The notes beneath the pieces were generated by a model, which saw nothing but the letters and a program-made list of their open reading frames with translations, ran no database searches and was not told where the DNA came from. From NCBI GenBank assembly GCA_017439405.1, contig JAFSJF010000101.1, positions 1 through 36,695 on the forward strand: 36,695 nucleotides of DNA. Reading direction: 5' to 3'. Below are positions 632 to 29,583 of the stretch, one piece after another (the first letter of the stretch is position 1; each line of letters starts with the position of its first letter). Source of the stretch: Bacteroidales bacterium (lineage in GTDB: Bacteria > Bacteroidota > Bacteroidia > Bacteroidales > F082). Both the position numbers and the translations under genes were made by a program.

Positions 632-1180
632 TCAATATGTGAGGTATTCCGACCACTCGCGCCAAAACGTGACCCCGCAATACTCGGCCAGTTCGCGGGA
701 GCGGAAGGCAAGGTGGATGTCGCAGTAGGTGGGGTTGAAGGCGAACGATGGAAGGACGGTGCAGAACTCCGCGTCACGCTTCGGGATTGCATCGTTGCCC
801 TTGAAGCGGTTCTTGACCTTCGCCGTTTGCGGGATGTATCGTGTGACTTCCTTTAGGGTGAACACGGGATAGTAGCGCGTCTCGCCTTCATAGAGGGTCG
901 GCTTCCAGCCGTCGTTGAGTGCCTCGGCTATGATGCAGAGTCGCATGTATGCCTGCACGTTGGTCGGCAGTCCCTTGTGGTCTTCGTTCCACTTGTAGGG
1001 GTCGATGCCCTGCTTGCGGCACGCCTCGCCGAAGTTGGCGGGCTTGTCTTGGATGTTGTAGGGGTTGAAGTGTTCCTCGCCGAAGAGGAACTCCATCATC
1101 TCGCGTGTTTCCTTGCTTGCCTTCTTGTAGGCTTTCTGCGCGATATTTGCGTTGGTTGTCAGTTTTATGTTTTCGTACAT
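632..1180 (-). CDS. Conserved-type phage hypothetical protein (182 aa)
   Basis: Function is not recognised. The protein is soluble, with no signal peptide or membrane segment. It has a charged N-terminal third (ASKETREMMEFLFG), a central stretch with many aromatic residues (YNIQ, DPYKWNED, RYYPVFTL) and the C-terminal motif FRSRELAEYCG before FWREWSEYL. I recall that C-terminal pattern from small accessory proteins of Bacteroides phages, but that is memory, not a search. The start is supported by AAGGAG eight bases upstream of the ATG. It is the last gene of a four-gene minus-strand operon, 31 bp after the 69-residue gene, and is followed by a GC-rich hairpin. Confidence 0.8.
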   Translation of the reverse strand: MYENIKLTTNANIAQKAYKKASKETREMMEFLFGEEHFNPYNIQDKPANFGEACRKQGIDPYKWNEDHKGLPTNVQAYMRLCIIAEALNDGWKPTLYEGETRYYPVFTLKEVTRYIPQTAKVKNRFKGNDAIPKRDAEFCTVLPSFAFNPTYCDIHLAFRSRELAEYCGVTFWREWSEYLTY

Positions 1181-15565: not shown

Positions 15566-18500
15566 ATGTCAGATACTCCTACAAAGAAAATTTCGGAACT
15601 GCCATTGAGTTCGGTATTGACCAACCTATTCACCATTGGCGTTGACGAAAACGATGAGAGCGTAAAGATACCCATCGGGCAGATGCTCAATTCCTTGGCG
15701 CATGAGATTGACGATGTGGCACAAGACCTTGACGACCTGCAAGAGGCCTTCAATGACTTGGAGGTGACAACCGAAATGATTCAGGACGGCGCAGTCACGA
15801 GGCCGAAGATTGCGGACAATGCCATCAACTCCGATAAGATTGCCCCCGATTCGGTGAACCGTGACCAACTTGCGGATGAGGCCGTGAACGAGGATAAGTT
15901 GGCGGACGATGCTGTCACCACTCTTAAGATTGAGGATGAGGCGGTGACGGAGGATAAACTTGCCGATGACGCTGTTTCGACCGACAAAATCCAAGATGGG
16001 GCGGTGACGGCTGACAAGTTGGCCGAAGGTGCCATTGGCAACATGGCCTTGGCCGATGGTTCCGTGACCACTCCCAAGCTGGCCAATGGCGCGGTGACAT
16101 CGACCAAAATCGGCGTGGGTGCCGTTGGTTCAGGACACATTGCGGATGGCGCGGTCATTGGTTCCAAGATTGCGGATTCCGCGGTCGGCCAAAGCAAGAT
16201 TGCGGACAATGCCGTTTCAGGTTCAAAAATCGCTTCAGGCGCGGTTTCGACCGAGAAGATAGCCGACAATGCAGTGACGGGCGGGAAACTCGCTGACGGG
16301 GCTGTTTCGGAGGCGAAAATCGGAAGCGGCGCGGTGTCGATGGCGAAGATTGCGGACGGTGCCGTGGGTGCATCGAAATTGGCTGATGGTGCCGTTGGTA
16401 CGGGCAAGATTGCTGACGGAGCCGTGACGGGTGCGAAGATTGGCAGTCAGGCCGTTGGGATGGGCAAGCTGGCGAGCGATGTGTATGCCAGCCTCCTTTT
16501 CTTCAATGTGAACGTGAGCGGCGGCAACACCATTCAGACCCTGAATGCGGCTCGTTCCCATGTGGCTGGCCTCTCCAATGCCTCCTTGCTGAAAAAGGCT
16601 GGTTTGGTGCTGGTTTTCAAGAATGCCAACGGGACGGTAGAGAATTGGCAGTACAACGGCGGCACTTGGGGTGAGGAAACCTCTTGGAAAGCCCTTGGCA
16701 GCGATGTGAAGCAAACCCTTATTAACGTGGATAACCTTTGCGGGTCGCCCAGCGGCGCGAGTTTCTACAACCTGCAGACGGCCATTGCGGCCATCGTGGC
16801 ATTGGGCAACTCCACGGGCATGGATTATAGGATGAGCGGATTGGTCATCACTTATAAGACCGCCGAAAACACATGGGAAACGAAGCAGTTCAAGGGTAAC
16901 GTTTCGGACTTCAACGAAACGGGATTGTGGGCTGACTTTGGCGGTGGCGGCGGTCATGTCGAGACCTCCGACACGCCAGCCGAGGATGGCGAAGATGCCT
17001 TTTCCACGGGTGGCGCGTATGAGTACATTCCCGCTGGAATCGATGTCGATACCGAGACGGAGGGCGTGGTGAAGTTGCAGATGGTGAACGCTGGCAACCA
17101 GCCCGTAGGCGACCAAGTGCAGTTCCCCATCGGCACGGGTGGCGGCGGCGGCACGGGTACGGTGGTCTCGCTGGCCTTCCAAAGTTCCCCGCTGTATGGC
17201 AGCGCGGGCGGCACCTTCATATTGAGGGCGGCGGTGCGCTCGGTGACGATGGTAGGCAGCACGGAGCAGGCCAACACGATTATGACGATTGAGCTGTACG
17301 ACCGCGACACCAACACCCTTTTGCAGACCTTCAACTTCAATCAGGCATCTTCGGCCTCGATGAGTACCTACGACTTTTTGATGGATGTGACCCAATACTT
17401 TGCAACGGCCGGAACGAGGCGGTTCCGTTGCGTGGCCACTGACGATTCAGGAAACACGGGTAGCAGAAACATCAACATTACGGCCGTTGATGTGACCATC
17501 AGCAGCGTGCAGACCCTTCAATATACCCAAAGCACGGCATTGGTGGCTGGCGGCTCCCCAAAGAGCATTCCGATGTATAAGTTTGCCAGCAATGCGAGTG
17601 ACCGAGGTATCACGGCCTATGCCGAAATCTACCTCAACGGGCAATGGCGGTCGCTGGGTACTTCGGTGATTACCGACACCTATTCACACAGCATCACCAT
17701 CGACCCGCAGAACTGCCTTGGCAATGTGCTGGCGCATGGTGCCTACCAAATCAGGATTCACGGCGTTGATGTGGCTTCGGGCGTGGTGGGCAACTACCTC
17801 TATACGGGCGTGTTTGTCATCGATGAGACCAGCACCGTGCCGTTGGTGGTGGAAAGCTGGTTGTGTGAGACCGCAAACGCCGTGGTGAAGCTGTATGAGA
17901 CCATCGTCCTGAATTATGCAGTCTATGACCCAAGGGACACGGCACCGACCGCCACGGTGTATTTGGACGGTGTGGCCGTTCAAAGCCACACGGCCTATCG
18001 GTCGGCGGCCTACACCTATACCCATCAGGTTTCGGGCGTGGCCTCCGATGGCACTTTCAGCCATATCATCAAAGTGGGTTGCGGTGCCTCGTATGGCGTG
18101 AATGCCGTTTTCCAAGTGAACGGCTCGGTGATTGACGCGGTGCTGAAAAGCGGTGCCATCTATTCCTTCGATTTTTCCAACCGAAGCAATGACGAGGCAA
18201 GCCATGAGATAGAGAGCAACGGCTACCATATCAGGGTGAACGGCTCGAATTGGAGTACCACGGGCTTCATCACCTACAAGGGCGACAAGTGCTTGAGGAT
18301 TGCGGAGGATGTGACGGCCACCCTTGACCATCACCCGTTCCAGCCCACTTCGATTGAGAGCAATGGAATGGCCATTCAGTTTGCCTTTGCCGCAAAGAAC
18401 CTCGTTGATGACGATGCCGTATTGATGGAGTGCTTCAACGATGGCGTTGGCGCGGGCTTCTATGTGACGGGCAAGGTGGTGGGCATCTATTGCAGCACCG

Positions 18501-21500
18501 GCTTGACCAACCATGCGGAGGAAAGAGCCTATAAGCAGGACGAAATGAACACCGTGGCCGTGGTGGTGGAGCCAGCCGCCGAAGGTCTCGGAGTGACCCG
18601 CTCGGGAACGACCTACTACTTCATTAAGCTGTACCTGAATGGTGAGGAGGTGGCTTGCATCGGCTATGTGGCCGGCCAAAGCAACCTGATTCAAAACAAG
18701 CAAATCTCTTTCAGCGGCACGCAAGGCGACTTCTACCTGCGCTATGCCTTGGCGTGGGATGATTATTTCCAATTCGACCAAGCCTTCCAAAACCACCTCG
18801 TCAAGCTGACCAACACGGCCGACATGGTGACGGAGTTTGATTTTGAGGATGTGATGGCCTCCCAGCAGGTGACGGAGCAAGGCGTGACCACTACGAAGCT
18901 GCGCCCGCAAGCCGCCGACTTGGAGGAAAGGGATATGGCCTACATCATCGAATGCCCCTACAACGGTTCGGATATTGAGGCGTTGGATAACACCACCAGC
19001 ACCAAGCAAAAGAACTATGTGACCCTCTACTACATCGACCCGAAACGGCCTTGGACTAACTTCAGGGCTGACGATGTGCAAAGGAGGAATCAAGGCACGA
19101 CTTCGGCCAAGCGACCCGTGAAGAATCCCCGCTACTACCTTGCGGCCAAGAATGGTTCAACCTACGACAAGGTGAATAAGACGGGCGGCACGACCATCAC
19201 CCTTTTGAATCCCGACCCGACCACCACGGCAGGACAAAGGGCAATTGCGCTGGCCGCTATCAATAAGGTGCAAATCCATGACGATTCAATCCCCGTTGAC
19301 ATTATCACGGTGAAGGTGGACTATTCCGACAGCTCCAATGCCAACGACTGCGGCGTTTGCGACCAAATGAACGCCACCTTCAGGGCGTTGGGTGCCAACT
19401 ACCTGACCCCAGCGCAAAGGGCGTTTGACGGTACTTGGAAAAAGGGTTCGTTGGAACTTGAAGGCCTGACGATGAACCATTCCACGGCCAACTTCCCCGT
19501 GGCCATGTACCGCTCAAAGAGCGACACGGGCAGCAGTCCCTATTTCCATGCCAAGGGCAATTGGAAAGAGGATAAGAAGGAGCAGGTTGCATTGGGATTC
19601 AAAGACACGCCTGGTTATAACAAGGGATGCTTGAATTATGGCGACTTCACGGAGTTCTACGGCAATGATGGCGAGACCCTTGCGCAGGAAAAGACCCGTT
19701 TCCTTGCCAGCAATCCCGACACCTCAAAGACCTATATCCTGACCCAATATTGCGGCAGCTCCTACAAGGTGATGATGTATGAGGAAGGCCAATGGGTCGA
19801 GAAATCAGGCTCGATGGTTCAGGGCGCAAACGGCAAGTGGACGGTGACGGGCAAGGTGATGAATCCCGTTGAGGGCTTCGAGCTGCTGAACTATCAGGGC
19901 ATGGACTGGTTCAAGGGCGTTTCATCGGTGGCTGACATGATGGCACCAAGCACCTCGTTCTCAAAGTGGGTTCAGGCTTTGATTGATGATGGTGACATTT
20001 CCGTTGAGACCGTCCCCGCGTGGACTTACTACTACGAAAGCCTTGTTGACGATGACGACTTGGCCATTGCATACGCGCTGGGTAAGAAAGTGCCGTACAA
20101 CCTTTATCGCTGGATGAAGTTCTGCGATTCGTGCGATTATGACACCTACGGAGGCGCGGCACGACTGAATCTTTGGAAAACCGACCTTTACAAGTATGCG
20201 TCCCCGTATTCGTGTTTCGGGTATAGCATTTTCACGGACTATGACGCTGCCGTTGACCAAAGGGCAAAGAACATGCAGCCCATGTGGTTCCTTGAAGACG
20301 GCTGCAAGGTCGTGGATGGCGTTTACTACAATGCCAACAACGAGGCCAGCGACACCACCACGGGGATGCTGGCAATGAGGATGTACCTGAATAAGGTGTA
20401 CGACTGCGACACCTGCAACGGCAAGGATAACGATGGCGGTCAGACGGTGGATGCCGAGGTTGACCCCAATAAGCTGCCCGACCCGCAAACGGGCTACACC
20501 AACCCCTATGCAGGTTATATGTCGGTGCTGTTCAGGAATATGTATCTCCAGCAGACCGTCTATGTGGATAGCAGCCAAACGGAGCTGTCGCTGAAGACGG
20601 TGGCATCGGCCATGAGGTCATGCACTACCACGGTGGACGGTCAGACCTTGAAGCCGTTTTCGCCCGAAGGGGCGCAATATTTCTTCGTGGACGCGAGGAT
20701 TAAGCGTTGGCAGAAGAAAGTATCGTCCTATGACGGTGAACGCAAGTACATTGATTTTACGGCCACCTCCGACAATATTTATTTCTATGCCTTGCAGGGG
20801 CTTGGCCTGACCTCGTTGCCCGCCTTCATCGAAAGAAGGTGGCGCATCCGTGACGGCTTCTATGGCGTGGGCGACTTTTTCAGCGGCGTGCTGGCTGGCC
20901 GTGTGAACGCTCCAAGCGGCGCGAAAATCCGAATCACGGCGGCAAAGACGGGCTACTTTGGCATCGGCAACGATTCAAGCGGCTCCCTGACGGAGAGCGT
21001 GTATTTGGAGGCTGGGGAAAGCTACAATTTTACCCAATTCAGCCATGAGGAAGGCGCGTTGCTTTACATCTACCAAGCGGATAGGATGTCGATGATTGAC
21101 CTTTCGGAAATCACCCTATCGAACAACTTCGATTTCTCGGTGATGACCCTTGCGGAGGAAATATACATCGGCAAGGTTGGCAAGGTGAACCTGACCATTG
21201 GAGCCTACACCCTATTGAGCAGCGTGAACATGGGAGAATTGCCGTTCCTGAAAGTGCTTGACATCAGGGACACGGTGATTACGAATGTGGTTTGCACTTC
21301 GTGTCCGAGGCTTGAAAGCCTCTACGCTGCTGGTAGCCAACTGACCCGTGCCGACATTGCGGACGGTGCAAAGATTACCTTGATGCAGTTGCCCGCCACC
21401 TACAACTACCTGAAACTGCGCTATCTGCCCAACCTGACCCTTCAGGGGTTGGTGCTGGCCAATCCAGCAAGCGTTGTTACCCTGATTGTTGAGAATTGCT

Positions 21501-23422
21501 CCAAAATCAGTTCCATCGATTTGTTGAGGGTTATCTCGCAGACTACGGGGACGGGGCTTCGTGTGGTGAGGGCTGCACCCGTCAATGTGAGTTATGACGG
21601 CAGCGATTTGGCCGTGCTGGCCGAGTTGCCGCTGACGGGCTTGGATGCCAACCTGACGGCTCAGGAGAAACCCGCCATCGTTGGCACCTATGTACTGACC
21701 AAGTTCAAGGATAATGACCTTTTGAGTTCGTGGAGGTCGTTCTTCGGCAATGACCTGACCATCCATCAGGCGCAGTTTACCACAGTGGAGTTTGACGATG
21801 CCGTGAACGACCCCGCCAATATCAGCAACCTTGACAATGAGACGGGATATAAGTATGAAAACGACTATGTGCCGAATGGCCATATCAGCGTGATACGCCA
21901 GCGGCTTATCCCCGTGAACGGGCGTTTGATTAACGGCGTGTTCAAGGGCAAAAAGATTAGTGAGAGCAATTACAAGCAATATGCCGATGGCTCGGAGTTC
22001 GACTACTCGGATGTACTTGGCGTTGGCAACGATTCCTTTATGAGGATTCCCCATTGCTGGTACAAGGGTATCAACGACTTCAAGAACGAGAAAAAGTACA
22101 TTTGTTGGAGTTCGCTTGAGAATGAGCCGTTGAGTACCGCGACCCGCATCACCCGTGCGACCCTTTCAAACATTGTGCTTCAGAGCAATGCCGCCATTAT
22201 GGTTGCGAACATCACCGACAACACCAGCACCCTTGAAAGTGAGGGCGTGGTTCAGGCCACACCCAACCACAACATCTATCAGATTGACGTGGAAGGGATG
22301 AAGCAGGTGCGCTGGCCTGGGCTGAACAGCGCGACCATTGGGGCGTGTTTCCTGAATGCCGAGGGGGTCATCATCAGTCACTACAACATGGCCATTGCTG
22401 GCTCGCTGTTTGACTTTGTGATTGGTGAATACATCTTCATCGATGTGCCAAGTGGGGCGAAATGGTTTGCCTTTGCCACGAATAGCAGCAACAACGCGCT
22501 GGAGGCCATCGCCGTTGATAGTGACAACATCGAGGCCATTGAACCTGATTGGGTGGAAAGCGATGAGTGTTTGGGCGGCATCTATGAGGCTTCCCTTGAC
22601 ACTTTGAGGCAGTTGCGTTCCATTTCAGGCGCAACGGTGAGAGTTGGCACGGGTACGAACACCACTTCATCGGAATGGGTTTACGATGACGATGGCAACC
22701 CGACCAACACCCCGACCGGCACGATGAACTGGACGGCCAAGGATTTCCAAAACCTTTCCCGCCGCCGTGGGGCTGGGTACCAGCTATTCGATTACGAAAT
22801 GAGCAAGTTGATTGCCAACCTTTACTTCTCATTCCACGGGAATAGGGATTCCTCCAAGGTGTTAGGTAGAGGAAAGTCATCAGGTGGCACCACGGGCTAT
22901 TTGGATAGTACGGGAAATTCCAGCAGTACCAATTTGGCCAATACCAGCGGCAACGGTAACAAGTGCCTTGGATTTGAATCGTTCTTTGCCTGCACCTATG
23001 AGTGGATGGATATGGTGGCCGTGAATGTAAGCACCTTTGAGGCCGCATACAAGGCCAAGATGACTACCAGCGGCTCATATCCGACTAATGCCAAGTGGCA
23101 TATTTACGACCCGATAAGAGGCACGGAACGTGTCGTTCAGGGCATCAGCGGCTCGGGTAATAACATCGCCCGTGTGAAGCATGGCCGCTTCTGCGATGTG
23201 ATTGCTTCGAAGTGTACCAGCGACACATCGGCCTATGTTGCAAATTACTGCGATGGTAATTGGTATTCAGATTCAACGTGCCGTGTTGTCGTTCGTGCGA
23301 GTGTCAACGCCCACGTGAACGGCGGTGTCGTTTATGCGAGTGAGAACAATGCGTGGTCGTACTCGTATACGAGTGTCGGTTCCCGTCTTGCCTTCAGGGG
23401 TCAGATACAAATAGAGGATTGA
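15566..23422 (+). CDS. Giant tail fibre / adhesin, probable DGR target protein (2618 aa)
   Basis: Layout, by residue: 1-70 a fibre-attachment type N-terminus (TKKISELPLSSVLTNLF); 71-300 a shaft of 23 ten-residue repeats of the type KIADGAVTGA; about 540-900 beta-sandwich, Ig-like segments; about 900-1090 a lectin/laminin-G-like segment; about 1200-1800 a large unassigned part with NHSTANFPVAMYRSKSD and CDTCNGKDNDGG; about 1845-2010 a leucine-rich solenoid; about 2270-2618 a C-terminal domain with RRGAGYQLFDYEMSKLIANL and HIYDPIRGTERVV, resembling the C-type-lectin/FGE fold used by DGR targets. The last 47 residues form the variable region, ending in GSRLAFRGQIQIED. The protein likely mediates host attachment at the tail tip. 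Domain borders are by eye. Confidence 0.85.
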   Translation: MSDTPTKKISELPLSSVLTNLFTIGVDENDESVKIPIGQMLNSLAHEIDDVAQDLDDLQEAFNDLEVTTEMIQDGAVTRPKIADNAINSDKIAPDSVNRDQLADEAVNEDKLADDAVTTLKIEDEAVTEDKLADDAVSTDKIQDGAVTADKLAEGAIGNMALADGSVTTPKLANGAVTSTKIGVGAVGSGHIADGAVIGSKIADSAVGQSKIADNAVSGSKIASGAVSTEKIADNAVTGGKLADGAVSEAKIGSGAVSMAKIADGAVGASKLADGAVGTGKIADGAVTGAKIGSQAVGMGKLASDVYASLLFFNVNVSGGNTIQTLNAARSHVAGLSNASLLKKAGLVLVFKNANGTVENWQYNGGTWGEETSWKALGSDVKQTLINVDNLCGSPSGASFYNLQTAIAAIVALGNSTGMDYRMSGLVITYKTAENTWETKQFKGNVSDFNETGLWADFGGGGGHVETSDTPAEDGEDAFSTGGAYEYIPAGIDVDTETEGVVKLQMVNAGNQPVGDQVQFPIGTGGGGGTGTVVSLAFQSSPLYGSAGGTFILRAAVRSVTMVGSTEQANTIMTIELYDRDTNTLLQTFNFNQASSASMSTYDFLMDVTQYFATAGTRRFRCVATDDSGNTGSRNINITAVDVTISSVQTLQYTQSTALVAGGSPKSIPMYKFASNASDRGITAYAEIYLNGQWRSLGTSVITDTYSHSITIDPQNCLGNVLAHGAYQIRIHGVDVASGVVGNYLYTGVFVIDETSTVPLVVESWLCETANAVVKLYETIVLNYAVYDPRDTAPTATVYLDGVAVQSHTAYRSAAYTYTHQVSGVASDGTFSHIIKVGCGASYGVNAVFQVNGSVIDAVLKSGAIYSFDFSNRSNDEASHEIESNGYHIRVNGSNWSTTGFITYKGDKCLRIAEDVTATLDHHPFQPTSIESNGMAIQFAFAAKNLVDDDAVLMECFNDGVGAGFYVTGKVVGIYCSTGLTNHAEERAYKQDEMNTVAVVVEPAAEGLGVTRSGTTYYFIKLYLNGEEVACIGYVAGQSNLIQNKQISFSGTQGDFYLRYALAWDDYFQFDQAFQNHLVKLTNTADMVTEFDFEDVMASQQVTEQGVTTTKLRPQAADLEERDMAYIIECPYNGSDIEALDNTTSTKQKNYVTLYYIDPKRPWTNFRADDVQRRNQGTTSAKRPVKNPRYYLAAKNGSTYDKVNKTGGTTITLLNPDPTTTAGQRAIALAAINKVQIHDDSIPVDIITVKVDYSDSSNANDCGVCDQMNATFRALGANYLTPAQRAFDGTWKKGSLELEGLTMNHSTANFPVAMYRSKSDTGSSPYFHAKGNWKEDKKEQVALGFKDTPGYNKGCLNYGDFTEFYGNDGETLAQEKTRFLASNPDTSKTYILTQYCGSSYKVMMYEEGQWVEKSGSMVQGANGKWTVTGKVMNPVEGFELLNYQGMDWFKGVSSVADMMAPSTSFSKWVQALIDDGDISVETVPAWTYYYESLVDDDDLAIAYALGKKVPYNLYRWMKFCDSCDYDTYGGAARLNLWKTDLYKYASPYSCFGYSIFTDYDAAVDQRAKNMQPMWFLEDGCKVVDGVYYNANNEASDTTTGMLAMRMYLNKVYDCDTCNGKDNDGGQTVDAEVDPNKLPDPQTGYTNPYAGYMSVLFRNMYLQQTVYVDSSQTELSLKTVASAMRSCTTTVDGQTLKPFSPEGAQYFFVDARIKRWQKKVSSYDGERKYIDFTATSDNIYFYALQGLGLTSLPAFIERRWRIRDGFYGVGDFFSGVLAGRVNAPSGAKIRITAAKTGYFGIGNDSSGSLTESVYLEAGESYNFTQFSHEEGALLYIYQADRMSMIDLSEITLSNNFDFSVMTLAEEIYIGKVGKVNLTIGAYTLLSSVNMGELPFLKVLDIRDTVITNVVCTSCPRLESLYAAGSQLTRADIADGAKITLMQLPATYNYLKLRYLPNLTLQGLVLANPASVVTLIVENCSKISSIDLLRVISQTTGTGLRVVRAAPVNVSYDGSDLAVLAELPLTGLDANLTAQEKPAIVGTYVLTKFKDNDLLSSWRSFFGNDLTIHQAQFTTVEFDDAVNDPANISNLDNETGYKYENDYVPNGHISVIRQRLIPVNGRLINGVFKGKKISESNYKQYADGSEFDYSDVLGVGNDSFMRIPHCWYKGINDFKNEKKYICWSSLENEPLSTATRITRATLSNIVLQSNAAIMVANITDNTSTLESEGVVQATPNHNIYQIDVEGMKQVRWPGLNSATIGACFLNAEGVIISHYNMAIAGSLFDFVIGEYIFIDVPSGAKWFAFATNSSNNALEAIAVDSDNIEAIEPDWVESDECLGGIYEASLDTLRQLRSISGATVRVGTGTNTTSSEWVYDDDGNPTNTPTGTMNWTAKDFQNLSRRRGAGYQLFDYEMSKLIANLYFSFHGNRDSSKVLGRGKSSGGTTGYLDSTGNSSSTNLANTSGNGNKCLGFESFFACTYEWMDMVAVNVSTFEAAYKAKMTTSGSYPTNAKWHIYDPIRGTERVVQGISGSGNNIARVKHGRFCDVIASKCTSDTSAYVANYCDGNWYSDSTCRVVVRASVNAHVNGGVVYASENNAWSYSYTSVGSRLAFRGQIQIED
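15776..16465 (+). repeat. 30-bp coding repeats of the fibre shaft (23 copies)
   Basis: Twenty-three consecutive ten-codon units encode variants of (K)(I/L)ADGAVxxx, for example KLADGAVGTG and KIADGAVTGA. Early units carry more acidic residues (KLADDAVSTD) and later ones more Gly. The period is exact throughout, which allows copy number to change by recombination. Such repeats build trimeric or solenoid shafts in phage fibres. Confidence 0.9.
23278..23422 (+). other. DGR variable region (VR) at the 3' end of the tail fibre gene
   Basis: The first ~65 bases align with the downstream copy at 23538-23602 at a fixed offset of 260. Within 23278-23342 there are six differences. At five, the downstream copy has A and this copy does not (23301 G, 23303 G, 23304 T, 23312 C, 23340 G). 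The sixth (23292 T, G downstream) is not adenine-linked. The changes turn Asn codons of the template into Ser2579, Val2580, His2583 and Ser2592. Further on, Tyr2599, Tyr2601 and Ser2603 also have codons reachable from Asn codons. The invariant end encodes GSRLAFRG, the usual conserved 3' part of a VR. Confidence 0.85.
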
Positions 23423-23464
23423 GTATGAAAACGAAATGCGAATATGCGAATATGCGTGTGGCGT

Positions 23465-23484
23465 GGCGGTCTGATAAGACCGCC
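23465..23484. promoter_or_regulatory. DGR target-recognition hairpin/cruciform with GATA tetraloop
   Basis: GGCGGTCT (23465-23472), GATA (23473-23476) and AGACCGCC (23477-23484) form a perfect 8-bp stem with a GRNA-type tetraloop, 42 bp after the stop codon. In the Bordetella phage DGR and its relatives a hairpin/cruciform of this size and loop class, just downstream of the VR, is needed for efficient mutagenic homing. It could also act as a terminator, but no T run follows. Confidence 0.75.
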
Positions 23485-23537
23485 CGACCGCCCACCATGC
23501 CATGAAATAGAACAAAAAAGGTAGAGGGTCTCATGCG

Positions 23538-23603
23538 GTGCCGTGTTGTCGGTCGTGCGAATAACAACGCCAACGTGAACGGCGGTGTCGTTTATGCGAA
23601 TGC
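23538..23603 (+). repeat. Truncated DGR template repeat (TR)
   Basis: A 5' partial copy of the VR. Read in the VR frame it has Asn codons (AAT, AAC) at the variable positions: Ala-Asn-Asn-Asn-Ala-Asn-Val-Asn, the pattern of a TR. The match ends at about 23602, five bases before the stop codon of the HNH gene on the other strand. The remaining ~70 bases expected from the VR, including the priming end, are missing here and are not seen on the far side of the HNH gene. Confidence 0.8.
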
Positions 23604-23607
23604 GCCT

Positions 23608-24258
23608 TTATACCTTATTCCTCAATAACTCACGGCGTTTCTTGCCGTATGCTCTTTGACATGATTTGCAGTAGGTCTGATAGCCGTGGCCTTTGATGTG
23701 ATAGAAGTCCTCAATCGGCTTCGTTTGTCCGCATATTTTGCACTGTTTTGTTGAACGGTCGCGCTTTGGTGGCAATGTGCCATCGGTGTTGTAGGAGTTG
23801 AGCGCGGATTGATAGGCGGATGCCGCCTCTTCAGCGGTGGCGAAAAGGCCAAGATGATAGCGCGTTTTGTTGATGCTGATTTCGGCTCCAAACTTGCCAA
23901 GGCTGGCGTAGTAATGCACTCCCCTGCCATGCTTGTTTGACTTTGCGCGTGAGGTGTTGTCCCTCGTTGTAATCTTTCGAAGGTTTTCAAGGCGGTTGTT
24001 TCGCTTATTGCCGTCAATATGGTCAATGACCAATTCATCCGTGCGTGTGAGTTTCCGATAGGCATTGAACGAATAGAACACGGCCTTGTGGACGGCGATT
24101 GTGGAATGCCTACCCTCTTTTGATAGGACTACTTGAAGATAGCCGTGTTTGTCGGTGGATTGCTTCAATTCCTTGCCTGTTTTCAATGAGAATACGCAGC
24201 CTTCATCGCTGACGGCATACAGACCCTCAAAACCGATAACATTTATTACTTTCATCAT
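23608..24258 (-). CDS. HNH homing endonuclease (NUMOD4-HNH-AP2-zinc finger)
   Basis: 216 residues with four visible modules. NUMOD4-type N-terminus: VIGFEGLYAVSDEGCVFSLK, 7-60. HNH core: LVIDHIDGNKRNNRLENLRK, about 77-95, with His80 and the Asn residues of the motif. AP2-like DNA-binding segment: GKFGAEISIN to YHLGLFATAEEAASAYQ, about 112-155. C-terminal CxxC/CxxC zinc finger: Cys173, Cys176, Cys197, Cys200. These enzymes cut a specific DNA site and spread by homing. It is the only minus-strand gene in the tail module, has its own promoter, and its 3' end abuts the broken template repeat. An ATG at 24255 is an equal start. Confidence 0.92.
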   Translation of the reverse strand: MMKVINVIGFEGLYAVSDEGCVFSLKTGKELKQSTDKHGYLQVVLSKEGRHSTIAVHKAVFYSFNAYRKLTRTDELVIDHIDGNKRNNRLENLRKITTRDNTSRAKSNKHGRGVHYYASLGKFGAEISINKTRYHLGLFATAEEAASAYQSALNSYNTDGTLPPKRDRSTKQCKICGQTKPIEDFYHIKGHGYQTYCKSCQRAYGKKRRELLRNKV

Positions 24259-24281
24259 TCAATAAGTGTTTATTTCGGTCG

Positions 24282-24315
24282 CAAAAATAGTAAAATTATT
24301 CGTATTAGAAACAAA
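24282..24315 (-). promoter_or_regulatory. Promoter of the HNH endonuclease gene
   Basis: On the minus strand TTTG (24315-24312) and TATTTTTG (24289-24282) are 22 bases apart. Both -7 sequence and spacing are identical to the KilA-N operon promoter. The ATG follows 23 bases later. Confidence 0.55.
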
Positions 24316-24341
24316 AAAAAGACAAAAAAATCAGATAAGCC

Positions 24342-24845
24342 ATGAAAAACGGATTTTGCAAGGTGTATGGTGCCGAGGCCGCGCAGGACGGCATCATCGT
24401 ATTGAGTGAAAAGAACTGCGTGATATTCTACGGGTATGGCACGGACGAACTTGGTGGCTGGAATTGGCGCAAGGACTACGACCATATCCCGACCGTGGCC
24501 GAGGTGAGGGCTGACATTGAGGCTTTGGTGAACGCCAAGACCGATGAAGTGATATTGACGGGGCTGAAATGGAACGGGAAACCCGTGTACCTCTCCAGCG
24601 AGAATGAATTCAATTTCAAGGCGGCTTACGACTTGGCGAAGGAAACGGAGGGTGCCATCTTGCCAATCAAGTTCAAGTTGGGCGAGGATGCGGACGGGGA
24701 ACCCGTTTACCACACATTCACCAAGGTTGATGTGCTGGCCGATTTTGTGACCCATATCTTCACCCATATCCAAACGACCATCAAGGCGGGTTGGGCTGAA
24801 AAGGATTCCATTGACTATTCACTTTACCAAGTTTCCGAGCCATGA
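24342..24845 (+). CDS. DUF4376-like tail protein
   Basis: 167 residues. The second half has the pattern I associate with DUF4376 proteins of phage tail modules: EVRADIEALVNAKTDEVILT, then WNGKPVYLSSENEFNFKAAY and the late FTKVDVLADFVTHIFTHIQT with KAGWAEKDSID. The family usually lies beside tail fibre genes and may help fibre assembly, though no activity is established. The stop overlaps the hub gene as ATGA. It resumes the plus-strand tail operon after the HNH gene. Confidence 0.6.
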   Translation: MKNGFCKVYGAEAAQDGIIVLSEKNCVIFYGYGTDELGGWNWRKDYDHIPTVAEVRADIEALVNAKTDEVILTGLKWNGKPVYLSSENEFNFKAAYDLAKETEGAILPIKFKLGEDADGEPVYHTFTKVDVLADFVTHIFTHIQTTIKAGWAEKDSIDYSLYQVSEP

Positions 24846-27724
24846 TTACATTATATTGGGATAACACCGAGATGGACATCGTTTCCCTTCAGATTCAGGA
24901 GAATGACAGCAGCTATCGGAGCCGTGGCCTGATGCAGAGGCCGCAATTGGTGTTGAAGTTCGCGCTGCCGACCTACCACGAAATCCCCGTGGGTGCATAT
25001 TGCACCTATATGGGCGAAACCTATAGGGTGATGTCGCCGCAGAACATTAAGAAGCAGGGGACACGGAATATCGAGTACACCCTGACGATGGGGACATATC
25101 AGGACAATATGAGCCTCTACAAGATGAGGAACACCGTGGACGGGCGGCTGAAATACTCGATGTGCAGCACCCCAGCGGAGTTCATCGCGGAGATTGTGGC
25201 CAACATGAACGCCCGTGACGGGGCTGGCGTTTGGAGCGTTGGGGATTGCATCGACACGGCACCCAAGACGATTGAGTTCAACCACACCTATTGCGATGCG
25301 GCCTTGTCGATGGTTGCGGATGAGTTTGAAACGGAGTGGGAAATCGTGAACCATGCCATTCACCTTCACCCCGTGAAATACAACGAGAACGCCCCTTTGC
25401 CGCTGTCGTATGGCAAGGGGAACGGATTCGTGCCTGGTGTTGGCCGCACGACCCCCGTTGGCGAGCAACCCATCAAGCGGCTGTATGTGCAGGGCGGCAA
25501 CCGCAACATCGACCGCTCGACCTATGGCTACCCTGATTTGATGCTGCCCTTCGACCAAACCCTTCAGTTTGACGGTGAGAAATTCGAGGATGAAACGGGC
25601 TTCGATTCCACCAAGGCACGGACATACAAGTCGGATAAGCAGGGATATTACATTGAGCGCATTGATGAAAGTACGGATTCATCGAAGGAGGATTCCATCG
25701 ATTGCTCCGACCGCTACCCGTCAAGGGTCGGCACGGTTTCAAGTGTGGTGGTGGTGGATGCCAGCCGCAACTTCTATGATTTCATTGATAACTCAATCCC
25801 CAACGACCTCAACTATACTGATTGCCTGATTGAGGGCGAAACGATGACGGTGATTTTCCAAACGGGTATGCTGGCCGGAAAAGAGTTTGATGTCAAGTAC
25901 CACCATTCGGAGCGGCGTTTTGAGATTGTGCCGTTTGAGTATGATGGAATCACCATGCCAAACGCGACTTGGATTCCAAACCCAAATACCCCTGACACTT
26001 ACGCCATATTTGGCTGTATGCTGCCCCAATCCTACATTTGCGACAATAACGCCAAGGAGGGTGCCTCATGGGATATGTTCAGGATGGCGGTGCGCTATTT
26101 GTACGCCAACGAGGACCAAAAATTCACCTTCACGGGCAAGCTGCAGGCCATGTGGTCGAGGGCGAATTGGTCAACGATTAGTCCAAAGTTGGTGGTGGGT
26201 GGCTATATCCATTTCAGCGACACCCAATTTGCGCCCAGCGGCACGGATATAAGGATTATCGGGATAAAGGACTATTTGACCGACCCCTACGCCCCGACCA
26301 TTGACATTTCAAACGGCATTGTCGGCCAATCCGTGACCACCACGCTTAATCAGGTGGGATGTCAGGAAGTGACGATTGGAGAGGCGCACATCGATTCAAT
26401 CAACTTCACCAAGCGGCGTTTCAGGGATGCGCTTGAGACGCTTACGATGATTCAGGAATCGCTGTTGTATTTCGGCGAGGCCATCAACCCAATCACCATT
26501 CAGACGATGGCAATGTTGGTTGGCGATGAATCGTTGCAGTTCGTTTTGTTGAATACATTGACCGACCCGCCGACCGAAATCATCATTACCGACCCGTATA
26601 ATGAGGCCACGCGAATGGTTACGATGCCAGCTTGCGCTTTGAAGCACATGACGCTTGGAATCGATACGATTATGAATGAGCATAATGAGACTTACCGCCA
26701 ATGGTCGATGAGTGCGTTGTCAACGGTTTTGAATGTGAATGATGCCGACAAGGGTTTTTATCTTTATGCGAAGTGTGTGAGTGACCCCGCTTCGGCTCAA
26801 ACGGGTGAATTTGTTCTTTCAGAAACCGCAATAGGTATGGAATCGATGACGGGGTACTACCACTTTCTCATTGGAATATTAAATTCGGAATATGATGGGG
26901 ATAGGAGTTTTGTCACCTTGTATGGCTTTACCGAGATATTGCCTGGCCGAATTACCTGCGATAGGATTGTGAGTAATGACGGGGCAAATTACTTTGATCT
27001 TGTAAATGGCCATATCCAAGCCAATAGCGCGTTTATTCGTGGAACAATTAGAAGTCCTTTTCATAATGTCGCTGGCGAAGTTGCTGCATATCAGAAATAT
27101 GACAATCTTATTACACATGATAGGGTTGATTATAATGTATTGTTAAGGTGGCATCCTGACCAATCGGGAAGGCATATTACAATCGTTGGGGGTGGGCATT
27201 TGATGACCCCTCCTTCAGGAATGTACTACTTCAAAGATGGCTGCAATATGACTAATGGATTTTCATTTGGCACGGTGTCATTGGTTGGATATGGTACTGA
27301 ACAAGCGTTTTATGGTTGGATTGTGGATAACTACACTCCGTGGGGAATTGATATTGTAGGTGATAACGAATACTTTGGCAGTCCTTTTAGGGTAATGGCA
27401 TTAGGTGCCTATCATGTTGCAAGCGGCGGAGGTGCAGTTGTGCGTCCTACTATACGAACTTTTGATGACTCTGAAGCCGAGATAACAAGGAATGGTGTTG
27501 GTGATTACACACTTTCCGTTTCAGGTGATTGGTTTGCCCATACTGAGACCTTTCCAAAAAACATCATAGTTAATTCATTAGGTGCTGAATGCCTTGCAAT
27601 TTGCACTGGAATGGCATACAATTCAACGGATGATACGATGGATTTCAGCATTGCAGTAACGCAAAAAGGGTCGGCTTATGATGCCAGCTTCAACTTCATA
27701 TTATTCCAATATTATCAGTTGTAA
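24842..27724 (+). CDS. Tail hub / tip protein with C-terminal receptor-binding-like region (960 aa)
   Basis: The N-terminal ~380 residues (MITLYWDNTEMDIVSLQIQE, VGAYCTYMGETYRVMSPQNI, FNHTYCDAALSMVADEF, LPLSYGKGNGFVPGVGR) have the look of Tal or gp27-like hub proteins, which close the tail tip. No peptidase or lysozyme motif is evident. From about residue 690 comes a fibre-type segment (PGRITCDRIVSNDGANYFDL). The coding sequence then becomes clearly AT-richer from about 26.86 kb to the stop, with more TTA, AAT and GAT codons. That suggests a separately acquired C-terminal domain, possibly for receptor binding. Confidence 0.7.
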   Translation: MITLYWDNTEMDIVSLQIQENDSSYRSRGLMQRPQLVLKFALPTYHEIPVGAYCTYMGETYRVMSPQNIKKQGTRNIEYTLTMGTYQDNMSLYKMRNTVDGRLKYSMCSTPAEFIAEIVANMNARDGAGVWSVGDCIDTAPKTIEFNHTYCDAALSMVADEFETEWEIVNHAIHLHPVKYNENAPLPLSYGKGNGFVPGVGRTTPVGEQPIKRLYVQGGNRNIDRSTYGYPDLMLPFDQTLQFDGEKFEDETGFDSTKARTYKSDKQGYYIERIDESTDSSKEDSIDCSDRYPSRVGTVSSVVVVDASRNFYDFIDNSIPNDLNYTDCLIEGETMTVIFQTGMLAGKEFDVKYHHSERRFEIVPFEYDGITMPNATWIPNPNTPDTYAIFGCMLPQSYICDNNAKEGASWDMFRMAVRYLYANEDQKFTFTGKLQAMWSRANWSTISPKLVVGGYIHFSDTQFAPSGTDIRIIGIKDYLTDPYAPTIDISNGIVGQSVTTTLNQVGCQEVTIGEAHIDSINFTKRRFRDALETLTMIQESLLYFGEAINPITIQTMAMLVGDESLQFVLLNTLTDPPTEIIITDPYNEATRMVTMPACALKHMTLGIDTIMNEHNETYRQWSMSALSTVLNVNDADKGFYLYAKCVSDPASAQTGEFVLSETAIGMESMTGYYHFLIGILNSEYDGDRSFVTLYGFTEILPGRITCDRIVSNDGANYFDLVNGHIQANSAFIRGTIRSPFHNVAGEVAAYQKYDNLITHDRVDYNVLLRWHPDQSGRHITIVGGGHLMTPPSGMYYFKDGCNMTNGFSFGTVSLVGYGTEQAFYGWIVDNYTPWGIDIVGDNEYFGSPFRVMALGAYHVASGGGAVVRPTIRTFDDSEAEITRNGVGDYTLSVSGDWFAHTETFPKNIIVNSLGAECLAICTGMAYNSTDDTMDFSIAVTQKGSAYDASFNFILFQYYQL

Positions 27725-29466: not shown

Positions 29467-29583
29467 TTATGTTTTGTTGTTAGTTTGTTACTTGAAATAG
29501 GGATGATTGTTACAAGATATTGAGAATCAACGTAGTTTTGCAGGGTCTGTAGATTCTGCATCGGAAAGTAATAGCCTCCTCCT

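What the first reader, a model, noticed from the sequence alone, without database searches (positions are those of the whole stretch)
23278..23603. Diversity-generating retroelement: variable region with adenine-specific differences from a nearby template repeat
Seen: 65 aligned bases of the tail fibre 3' end and a downstream copy at offset 260 differ at six positions, and five of the six are A in the downstream copy (13 A in total in that copy). The downstream copy has Asn codons at the variable sites, as DGR templates do. Known: DGR reverse transcriptases mutate only at template adenines, and targets are C-terminal lectin-fold domains. Inferred: this phage varies, or once varied, its host-binding protein.
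Basis: partly seen in the sequence, partly recalled or inferred. Interest (0 to 1): 0.92.

Follow-up and report, generated by a model that had tools for sequence, protein, structure and literature searches.

The report
Endonuclease gene displaced phage diversity engine
A bacterial virus once used a reverse transcriptase to keep re-writing its host-binding tail tip, but in this copy the reverse transcriptase and part of its template are gone and a putative DNA-cutting gene sits in their place, a swap also seen in a few related viruses.

Summary
In detail: the tail-fibre 3' end (VR1) and a copy 260 bp downstream differ at 6 of 65 positions, 5 at A of the copy. It is the remnant of a diversity-generating retroelement (DGR). 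Of 19 relatives with an RT, 15 have the order fibre VR, TR of about 115 nt, RT; 189 of their 193 VR/TR differences fall on template A. In the window the TR stops after 66 nt, the RT is absent, and a NUMOD4/HNH_3 endonuclease gene (23608-24258, minus) fills the gap; the RT's last codons remain as a scar near 24326-24341. No kin RT was found elsewhere in the assembly. The other half of the prophage (contig C88; shared 18-bp att core) carries a second VR, 6 of 6 differences at template A. The three closest viral relatives of the HNH protein (49-56%) also lie just after DGR-type fibres; two have a truncated TR and no RT. Within one genus the HNH state is scattered among phages with RT. I infer a homing-endonuclease lineage that repeatedly displaces DGR reverse transcriptases. 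Cleavage was not tested.

The parts
15566..23422 (+). tail fibre gene (2618 aa) whose 3' end holds VR1
   Evidence: its C-terminal part matches phrog_14959 (unknown function) and phrog_5302 (tail protein); relative 84% identical over the last 293 aa in same-genus genome G023
23279..23391 (+). VR1, variable repeat (full length as judged from the TR of relatives)
   Evidence: homologous VRs in relatives
23465..23484 (+). hairpin just after the fibre gene, 8-bp stem with GATA loop, like the target hairpin described for phage DGRs (PMC3240598 passages)
   Evidence: 7-bp versions in L011, L012, L014, L035 and L060; of 19 sites tested 11 gave none and L032 and L033 gave unlike ones (perfect stems of 6 bp or more with 4- or 6-nt loops only)
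23520..23534 (+). conserved block GGTAGAGGGTCTCAT just before the TR, also in L012, L035, L060 and L063
23539..23604 (+). truncated template repeat (5' part only; relatives have about 115 nt)
23608..24258 (-). NUMOD4 / HNH_3 endonuclease gene (sub-threshold AP2 match), 216 aa, in the place of the RT
   Evidence: Pfam, PHROGs; no HNH hit in the relatives with RT; remnant in G080
24326..24341 (+). scar: last codons of the lost RT gene plus the bases before the DUF4376-like gene
   Evidence: same bases at the RT end of L035 and nearly so L060; coordinates
24342..24845 (+). DUF4376-like gene (below Pfam's cut-off) that follows the RT in most kin loci and in Bacteroides phage p00
29554..29571 (+). 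18-bp att core, also at the 3' end of an mnmE-like gene (named by eye) on contig C88 (3389-3406): joins this half-prophage to the half with VR2
632..1180 (-). paralogue (phrog_11581) of the VR2 protein, without a recognisable VR

Best explanation
The segment is the remnant of a phage DGR. Shown: VR1 in the fibre, a second remote VR in an early-region protein on the other half of the same prophage, a template repeat cut to its first 66 nt, and, where relatives have the rest of the TR and the RT, an HNH endonuclease gene, with the RT's final codons left as a scar. Inferred: the DGR once rewrote both VRs at template A. A mobile HNH endonuclease gene then took over the locus by homing-like recombination (a cut in the DGR cassette, repair from a DNA carrying the endonuclease gene, using homology on the fibre/TR side and the DUF4376 side), removing the 3' TR and RT and freezing both VRs in their last state. 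The same endonuclease clade has done this in other phages.
For: Kin: 15 of 19 RT loci examined have an adjacent VR/TR pair, 189 of 193 differences at TR-A (some of the 15 are close relatives of each other). Window VR1 5 of 6 (5 of 7 to the end of the TR), VR2 6 of 6 at TR-A; kin G001 VR2 13 of 13 against its own TR. TR cut, RT absent, RT-end scar. HNH gene. Own genome: RVT_1 in two places only, a retron-like RT and a distant phage RT 22% identical to the kin RT; VR1 DNA finds VR1, the TR remnant and VR2, and otherwise only 7 short matches at E 5.7. Same swap in L227 (TR cut at 74 nt, 7 of 7 at A, no RT on the contig piece) and L086 (43-nt TR remnant, 2 of 2 at A, ending exactly at the HNH stop codon, no RT on the piece). 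G080 has a decayed HNH fragment in the same gap although its fibre is 95% identical over 700 nt upstream of the VR to L035, which has TR and RT; fibre tree.
Against: No cleavage was shown and no target site is known. Loss of the RT could have come first. L087 has the HNH gene downstream of a full TR and RT-like frames, so the gene need not enter by replacing the RT. Orientation differs (window and L086 opposite to the fibre, L227 and L087 same), which a single homing site does not explain. VR1 has two non-A differences of seven. The DUF4376 tree is poorly resolved and places G080 with G023 (88/88), unlike the fibre tree, so recombination may have carried DGR or HNH states about. The sample is four HNH loci plus one fragment. 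An RT of an unassembled or co-infecting phage acting on VR1 cannot be excluded.
Confidence: 0.7

Rival explanations
1. Decay first: the RT and 3' TR were lost by ordinary deletion, and an HNH gene later landed in the vacant space, or had been a neighbour of the RT and survived the deletion.
For: L087 shows an HNH gene downstream of the RT frames in a DGR with a full TR, and the related L086 (fibres 46% identical) shows the RT-less state; G099 shows fibre next to the DUF4376-like gene with no TR, RT or HNH between.
Against: Window, L086 and L227 all keep the 5' part of the TR; in L086 the HNH stop codon abuts the TR remnant and in the window it is 3 nt away, which random deletions ending beside an HNH gene would not often give; HNH state is scattered over the fibre tree.
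Confidence: 0.21
2. The DGR is still working in trans: an RT and full TR from another prophage or co-infecting phage rewrites VR1 and VR2.
For: VR1, VR2 and a hairpin like the DGR target hairpin are present; remote VRs occur with a distant cassette in 3 of 5 kin records searched and in published Bacteroidota prophages (PMC12629997, passages).
Against: No kin RT and no full TR found in the 98%-complete assembly; the C5 RT is 22% identical to the kin RT and no A-biased repeat was seen among the best repeats of its 12-kb contig.
Confidence: 0.05
3. A simple duplication of the fibre end with random differences, no DGR.
For: The window pair alone has only six or seven differences, one or two of them not at A.
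Against: VR2, 15 relatives with RT, and 189 of 193 A-site differences.
Confidence: 0.01
4. An assembly chimera joined a TR to an unrelated HNH contig.
For: TR, VR1 and VR2 are near-repeats and the genome is a 159-contig draft with 5% contamination.
Against: The right side keeps RT-end bases and the usual DUF4376-like gene; G080 is a separate assembly with a piece of the same HNH gene in the same gap.
Confidence: 0.03

Closest known systems
DGR of Bacteroides phage p00 (hankyphage)
   Same: RT of the kin phages is 47-48% identical; same order VR, TR, RT, DUF4376-like gene; its activity is reported in PMC12135933 (passages)
   Different: the window has no RT, a cut TR and an HNH gene instead
Bacteroidota prophages with a second, distal VR (PMC12629997, passages read)
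   Same: a remote VR in another gene. Bacteroides phage BI-TP1 has a relative of the VR2 protein (38%) whose DNA matches two copies by its RT and tail gene; whether BI-TP1 is one of the paper's four species was not checked
   Different: in the window phage the RT that would serve both VRs was not found
Free-standing NUMOD4-HNH homing endonucleases of phages (type recalled)
   Same: domain make-up, presence/absence between relatives at one place
   Different: the four most similar members found here all lie at DGR-type fibres; no RT-profile hit in the other fetched HNH contigs

Membership tests
Diversity-generating retroelement | VR/TR pair differing at template adenines | tested here: met
   VR1 5 of 6 (5 of 7 to the end of the TR), VR2 6 of 6; kin 189 of 193
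Diversity-generating retroelement | complete template repeat | tested here: not met
   66 of about 115 nt remain
Diversity-generating retroelement | cognate reverse transcriptase | tested here: not met
   RVT_1 not found in the window; own genome has only a retron-like RT and a distant phage RT
Diversity-generating retroelement | VR in a C-terminal ligand-binding (lectin-fold) domain | tested here: inconclusive
Diversity-generating retroelement | target-recognition hairpin downstream of the VR | tested here: met
   8-bp stem, GATA loop at 23465-23484 for VR1; none found by the same script after VR2
Diversity-generating retroelement | Avd accessory protein | tested here: inconclusive
   no Avd model match among the few neighbours scanned; no genome-wide Avd search was made
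Diversity-generating retroelement | ongoing diversification | not testable with these tools
   needs reads or passage of the strain
NUMOD4-HNH homing endonuclease | NUMOD4 and HNH domains | tested here: met
   Pfam over cut-off for both
NUMOD4-HNH homing endonuclease | present in some, absent in other close relatives at one site | tested here: met
   window with, G080 with a fragment, G023 and L035 without
NUMOD4-HNH homing endonuclease | cuts the allele that lacks it | not testable with these tools
   needs the purified protein

The most novel reading that the evidence does not exclude
This HNH clade began as a working part of some DGRs, the target-cutting endonuclease that PMC3240598 says awaits identification (passage), as in the L087 state (full TR, RT, HNH in a row), and later escaped as a selfish gene that cuts TR/VR-like DNA and evicts the RT.
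Probability: 0.07. Interest if true: 0.85.

Novelty: new variant of a known kind. Interest (0 to 1): 0.55.

Why it matters
DGRs are generally seen as an advantage to the phages that carry them. A clade of endonuclease genes that repeatedly takes the place of the DGR reverse transcriptase would be a direct conflict between two kinds of genetic element inside one virus, would show one way in which such engines are switched off, and would mean that VR/TR pairs without an RT should be searched for neighbouring HNH genes. It also gives apparently frozen VRs to compare with kin that keep the RT.

Tried and rejected
Simple duplication: rejected by relatives. Trans-acting RT from the same genome: the C5 RT was considered; no A-biased repeat among the best repeats of that contig. 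Reference phages by DNA: no match to 21500-24850. HNH relatives in GTDB genomes by alignment: 49 loci from two short peptide patterns, the best by E-value 40% over 97 residues, none with an RT-profile hit. HNH alignment in 393 genomes of the order at E 1e-30: only the window's own genome. PDB search with the fibre C-terminus: nothing. Fold prediction could not be done.

Corrected on re-checking: I had taken a C-to-T change in the window TR (23562), shared by both window VRs, as window-specific proof of recent copying; one search shows the same T in the templates of L011 and L012, and one search shows it in L013, L039 and L040, so it may be ancestral and I no longer use it. Confidence was lowered slightly for this (0.72 to 0.70). 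I had also called the small genes after the HNH in L086, L087 and L227 DUF4376-like; tblastn, Pfam and blastp do not support that for L086 and L087 and only weakly for L227 (the L087 gene was not scanned with Pfam).

Results that sit less well: VR2 of G023 has 6 of 20 differences to its own TR at non-A sites, one of them the first base outside the core, so VR2 there looks rewritten less often or from an older template. L041 has an indel and its ungapped count is not usable. In BI-TP1 the two copies gave the same best match in my script, so TR and VR were not told apart. L025, L026, L027 and L068 have an RT without an adjacent VR. L028 has no DUF4376 hit after its RT. One RT row (L065) had a stop in my translation.
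Full report
Observation. Six differences, five at an A of the downstream copy, none at an A of the upstream copy. The upstream copy is the 3' end of a 2618-aa fibre gene. Carried on to 23604, where homology to kin templates ends, VR1 has seven differences, five at A.

Relatives show what the pair is. IMG/VR loci L011, L012 and L014 have a fibre whose last 293 aa are 65-68% identical to the window's, then a template repeat of about 115 nt, a 493-aa reverse transcriptase, then the DUF4376-like gene. The kin RT is 47-48% identical to the RT of Bacteroides phage p00, whose record annotates VR and TR; its best PDB sequence match is 8ub7, labelled Reverse transcriptase (from memory the Bordetella phage DGR enzyme). 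I tested 19 RT loci for an adjacent repeat pair. Fifteen have one, and 189 of their 193 differences are at template A (TR-A are 400 of 1718 sites; several of the 15 are near relatives, such as L011 and L012). Four (L025, L026, L027, L068) have no adjacent VR. A DUF4376 hit follows the RT in 14 of the 15 (not L028).

The window's copy is a cut template. Homology to the kin TR stops at 23604; three bases on lies the stop codon of a minus-strand gene of 216 aa with NUMOD4 and HNH_3 over their Pfam cut-offs and a sub-threshold AP2 match. On its other side, 24326-24341 repeats the last codons of the L035 RT gene and the bases before the next start codon. So the 3' part of the TR and the RT were exchanged in place for the HNH gene. 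The own genome (159 contigs, completeness 98%) holds RVT_1 matches in two places only: a retron-like RT on C56 and a phage RT on C5 that is 22% identical to the kin RT. A DNA search with VR1 finds VR1, the TR remnant and one more strong place; seven other matches are short, E 5.7.

That third place is a second VR. Contig C88 (12902-13019) carries it in a 201-aa early-region protein, phrog_11581. Against the TR remnant it has six differences, all at A. C88 and the window are the two halves of one prophage: an 18-bp sequence at the 3' end of an mnmE-like gene (named by eye) on C88 recurs at window 29554-29571, and both contigs break in the same kind of A/T-rich repeat. In 3 of 5 kin records searched, VR1, TR and a remote third copy lie on one contig (G001, G003, G004; the third copy of G003 is weak, E 0.04, but its VR2 protein is L041); in G001 the remote copy differs from the TR at 13 sites, all A. 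Distal second VRs near methyltransferase genes were already reported for Bacteroidota prophages (PMC12629997, passages), so VR2 is a known kind of target; its function is unknown.

How recently the DGR worked is not well fixed. Between the TR remnant and VR2 there is no non-A difference and between it and VR1 two, over 66 nt, which suggests that not much time has passed since copying. A C-to-T change shared by window TR and VRs against their nearest kin cannot be used, as more distant templates share it. Between eight VRs of the clade, 9-23 of 25 A sites differ but only 0-8 of 88 other sites (28 pairs). A hairpin with an 8-bp stem and GATA loop follows the fibre gene, like the target hairpin with a GRNA loop described for phage DGRs (PMC3240598, passages); of 19 sites tested, 6 have this type, L032 and L033 have unlike hairpins and 11, the VR2 site among them, gave none.

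The swap recurs. In same-genus genome G080 the gap between fibre and DUF4376-like gene holds about 20 nt of TR and a 35-aa piece of the same HNH gene, 80% identical. Among 99 same-genus genomes 12 match the HNH DNA; only the window and G080 (187 bases) are strong, the other 10 matches being under 90 bases (at most five candidates per genome were scored). G080's fibre is 95% identical over 700 nt to L035 and the window's 87% to G023, and L035 and G023 have TR and RT. In the fibre tree G080 pairs with L035 (100/100), and G023 joins these (99/96) with the window outside (97/97); the DUF4376 tree is poorly resolved and puts G080 with G023 (88/88). So the HNH state was gained at least twice, or the DGR was regained, perhaps by recombination. 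G099 has neither TR, RT nor HNH at this place.

Further off, HNH relatives of 49-56% identity over nearly the whole protein exist in three viral contigs, and all three lie just after a fibre with a VR/TR pair. L227: TR cut at 74 nt, 7 of 7 differences at A, HNH, no RT. L086: TR remnant 1484-1526, 2 of 2 at A, with the HNH stop codon ending at 1483, no RT on the fetched piece. L087: full TR, 13 of 13 at A, RT in three frames (broken gene or sequencing error), then HNH. The matched parts of the L227 and L086 fibres are only 30% and 21% identical to the window's; L086 and L087 are related (fibres 46%). So there are at least two further phage lineages. By E-value the next HNH relatives are about 41% over some 140-150 residues. 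An RT profile was run on all 277 fetched HNH loci (many contigs occur more than once, flanks of 4-6 kb at most); it hit only L087 and L228, which are one contig. A scan for A-biased repeats in 209 of the 277 found only L087/L228 and L227 as clear cases, with weak hits in L134 and again L087/L228; L086 did not pass its filter.

Mechanism. Shown: the exchange, its borders, its recurrence, the domain make-up. Inferred: the HNH protein is a homing endonuclease that cuts DGR cassettes, and repair from an HNH-bearing DNA replaces the RT. The main alternative, decay first with the HNH as neighbour or latecomer, is not excluded. The different orientations (window and L086 against the fibre; L227 and L087 with it) argue for more than one entry.

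Print. Searches pairing DGR with homing endonuclease, with HNH endonuclease, or with endonuclease/truncated/template repeat/degenerate (listings only) gave no paper whose title or abstract start reports this; the main text of PMC8144416 holds neither 'HNH' nor 'endonuclease' by word search, and the passages seen of PMC12386605 treat homing endonucleases and DGRs apart. The library is partial, so this is not proof of absence.

Noticed in passing
L070 (G071 C44) 1-920: A DGR TR and the first ~50 codons of an RT are followed at once by a CRISPR-like array with a repeat of about 47 nt (by eye); real insertion or misassembly not settled.
   Followed up: no
L016 6009-8447 (contig C88): The terminase-like gene (812 aa) of the same prophage looks, by eye, as if it carries an intein.
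   Followed up: no
L068 and L069 (G067), L025-L027: RT and TR without an adjacent VR; in G067 a TR-like copy lies on another contig in a VR2-type protein, so some cassettes may serve only remote targets.
   Followed up: partly
L013 6745-6927: A fibre VR runs on into the tail of the VR2 protein near a contig end: VR1/VR2 recombination or assembly chimera.
   Followed up: no
L002 55-2700 (contig C5): A second phage RT after a gene that looks fibre-like by eye, with no TR seen on the contig.
   Followed up: partly
L001 1114-2589 (contig C56): A retron-like RT (best NCBIfam models are retron RTs, below cut-off).
   Followed up: no
window 632-1180 (-): A phrog_11581 paralogue of the VR2 protein without a recognisable VR, in the same prophage.
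   Followed up: partly
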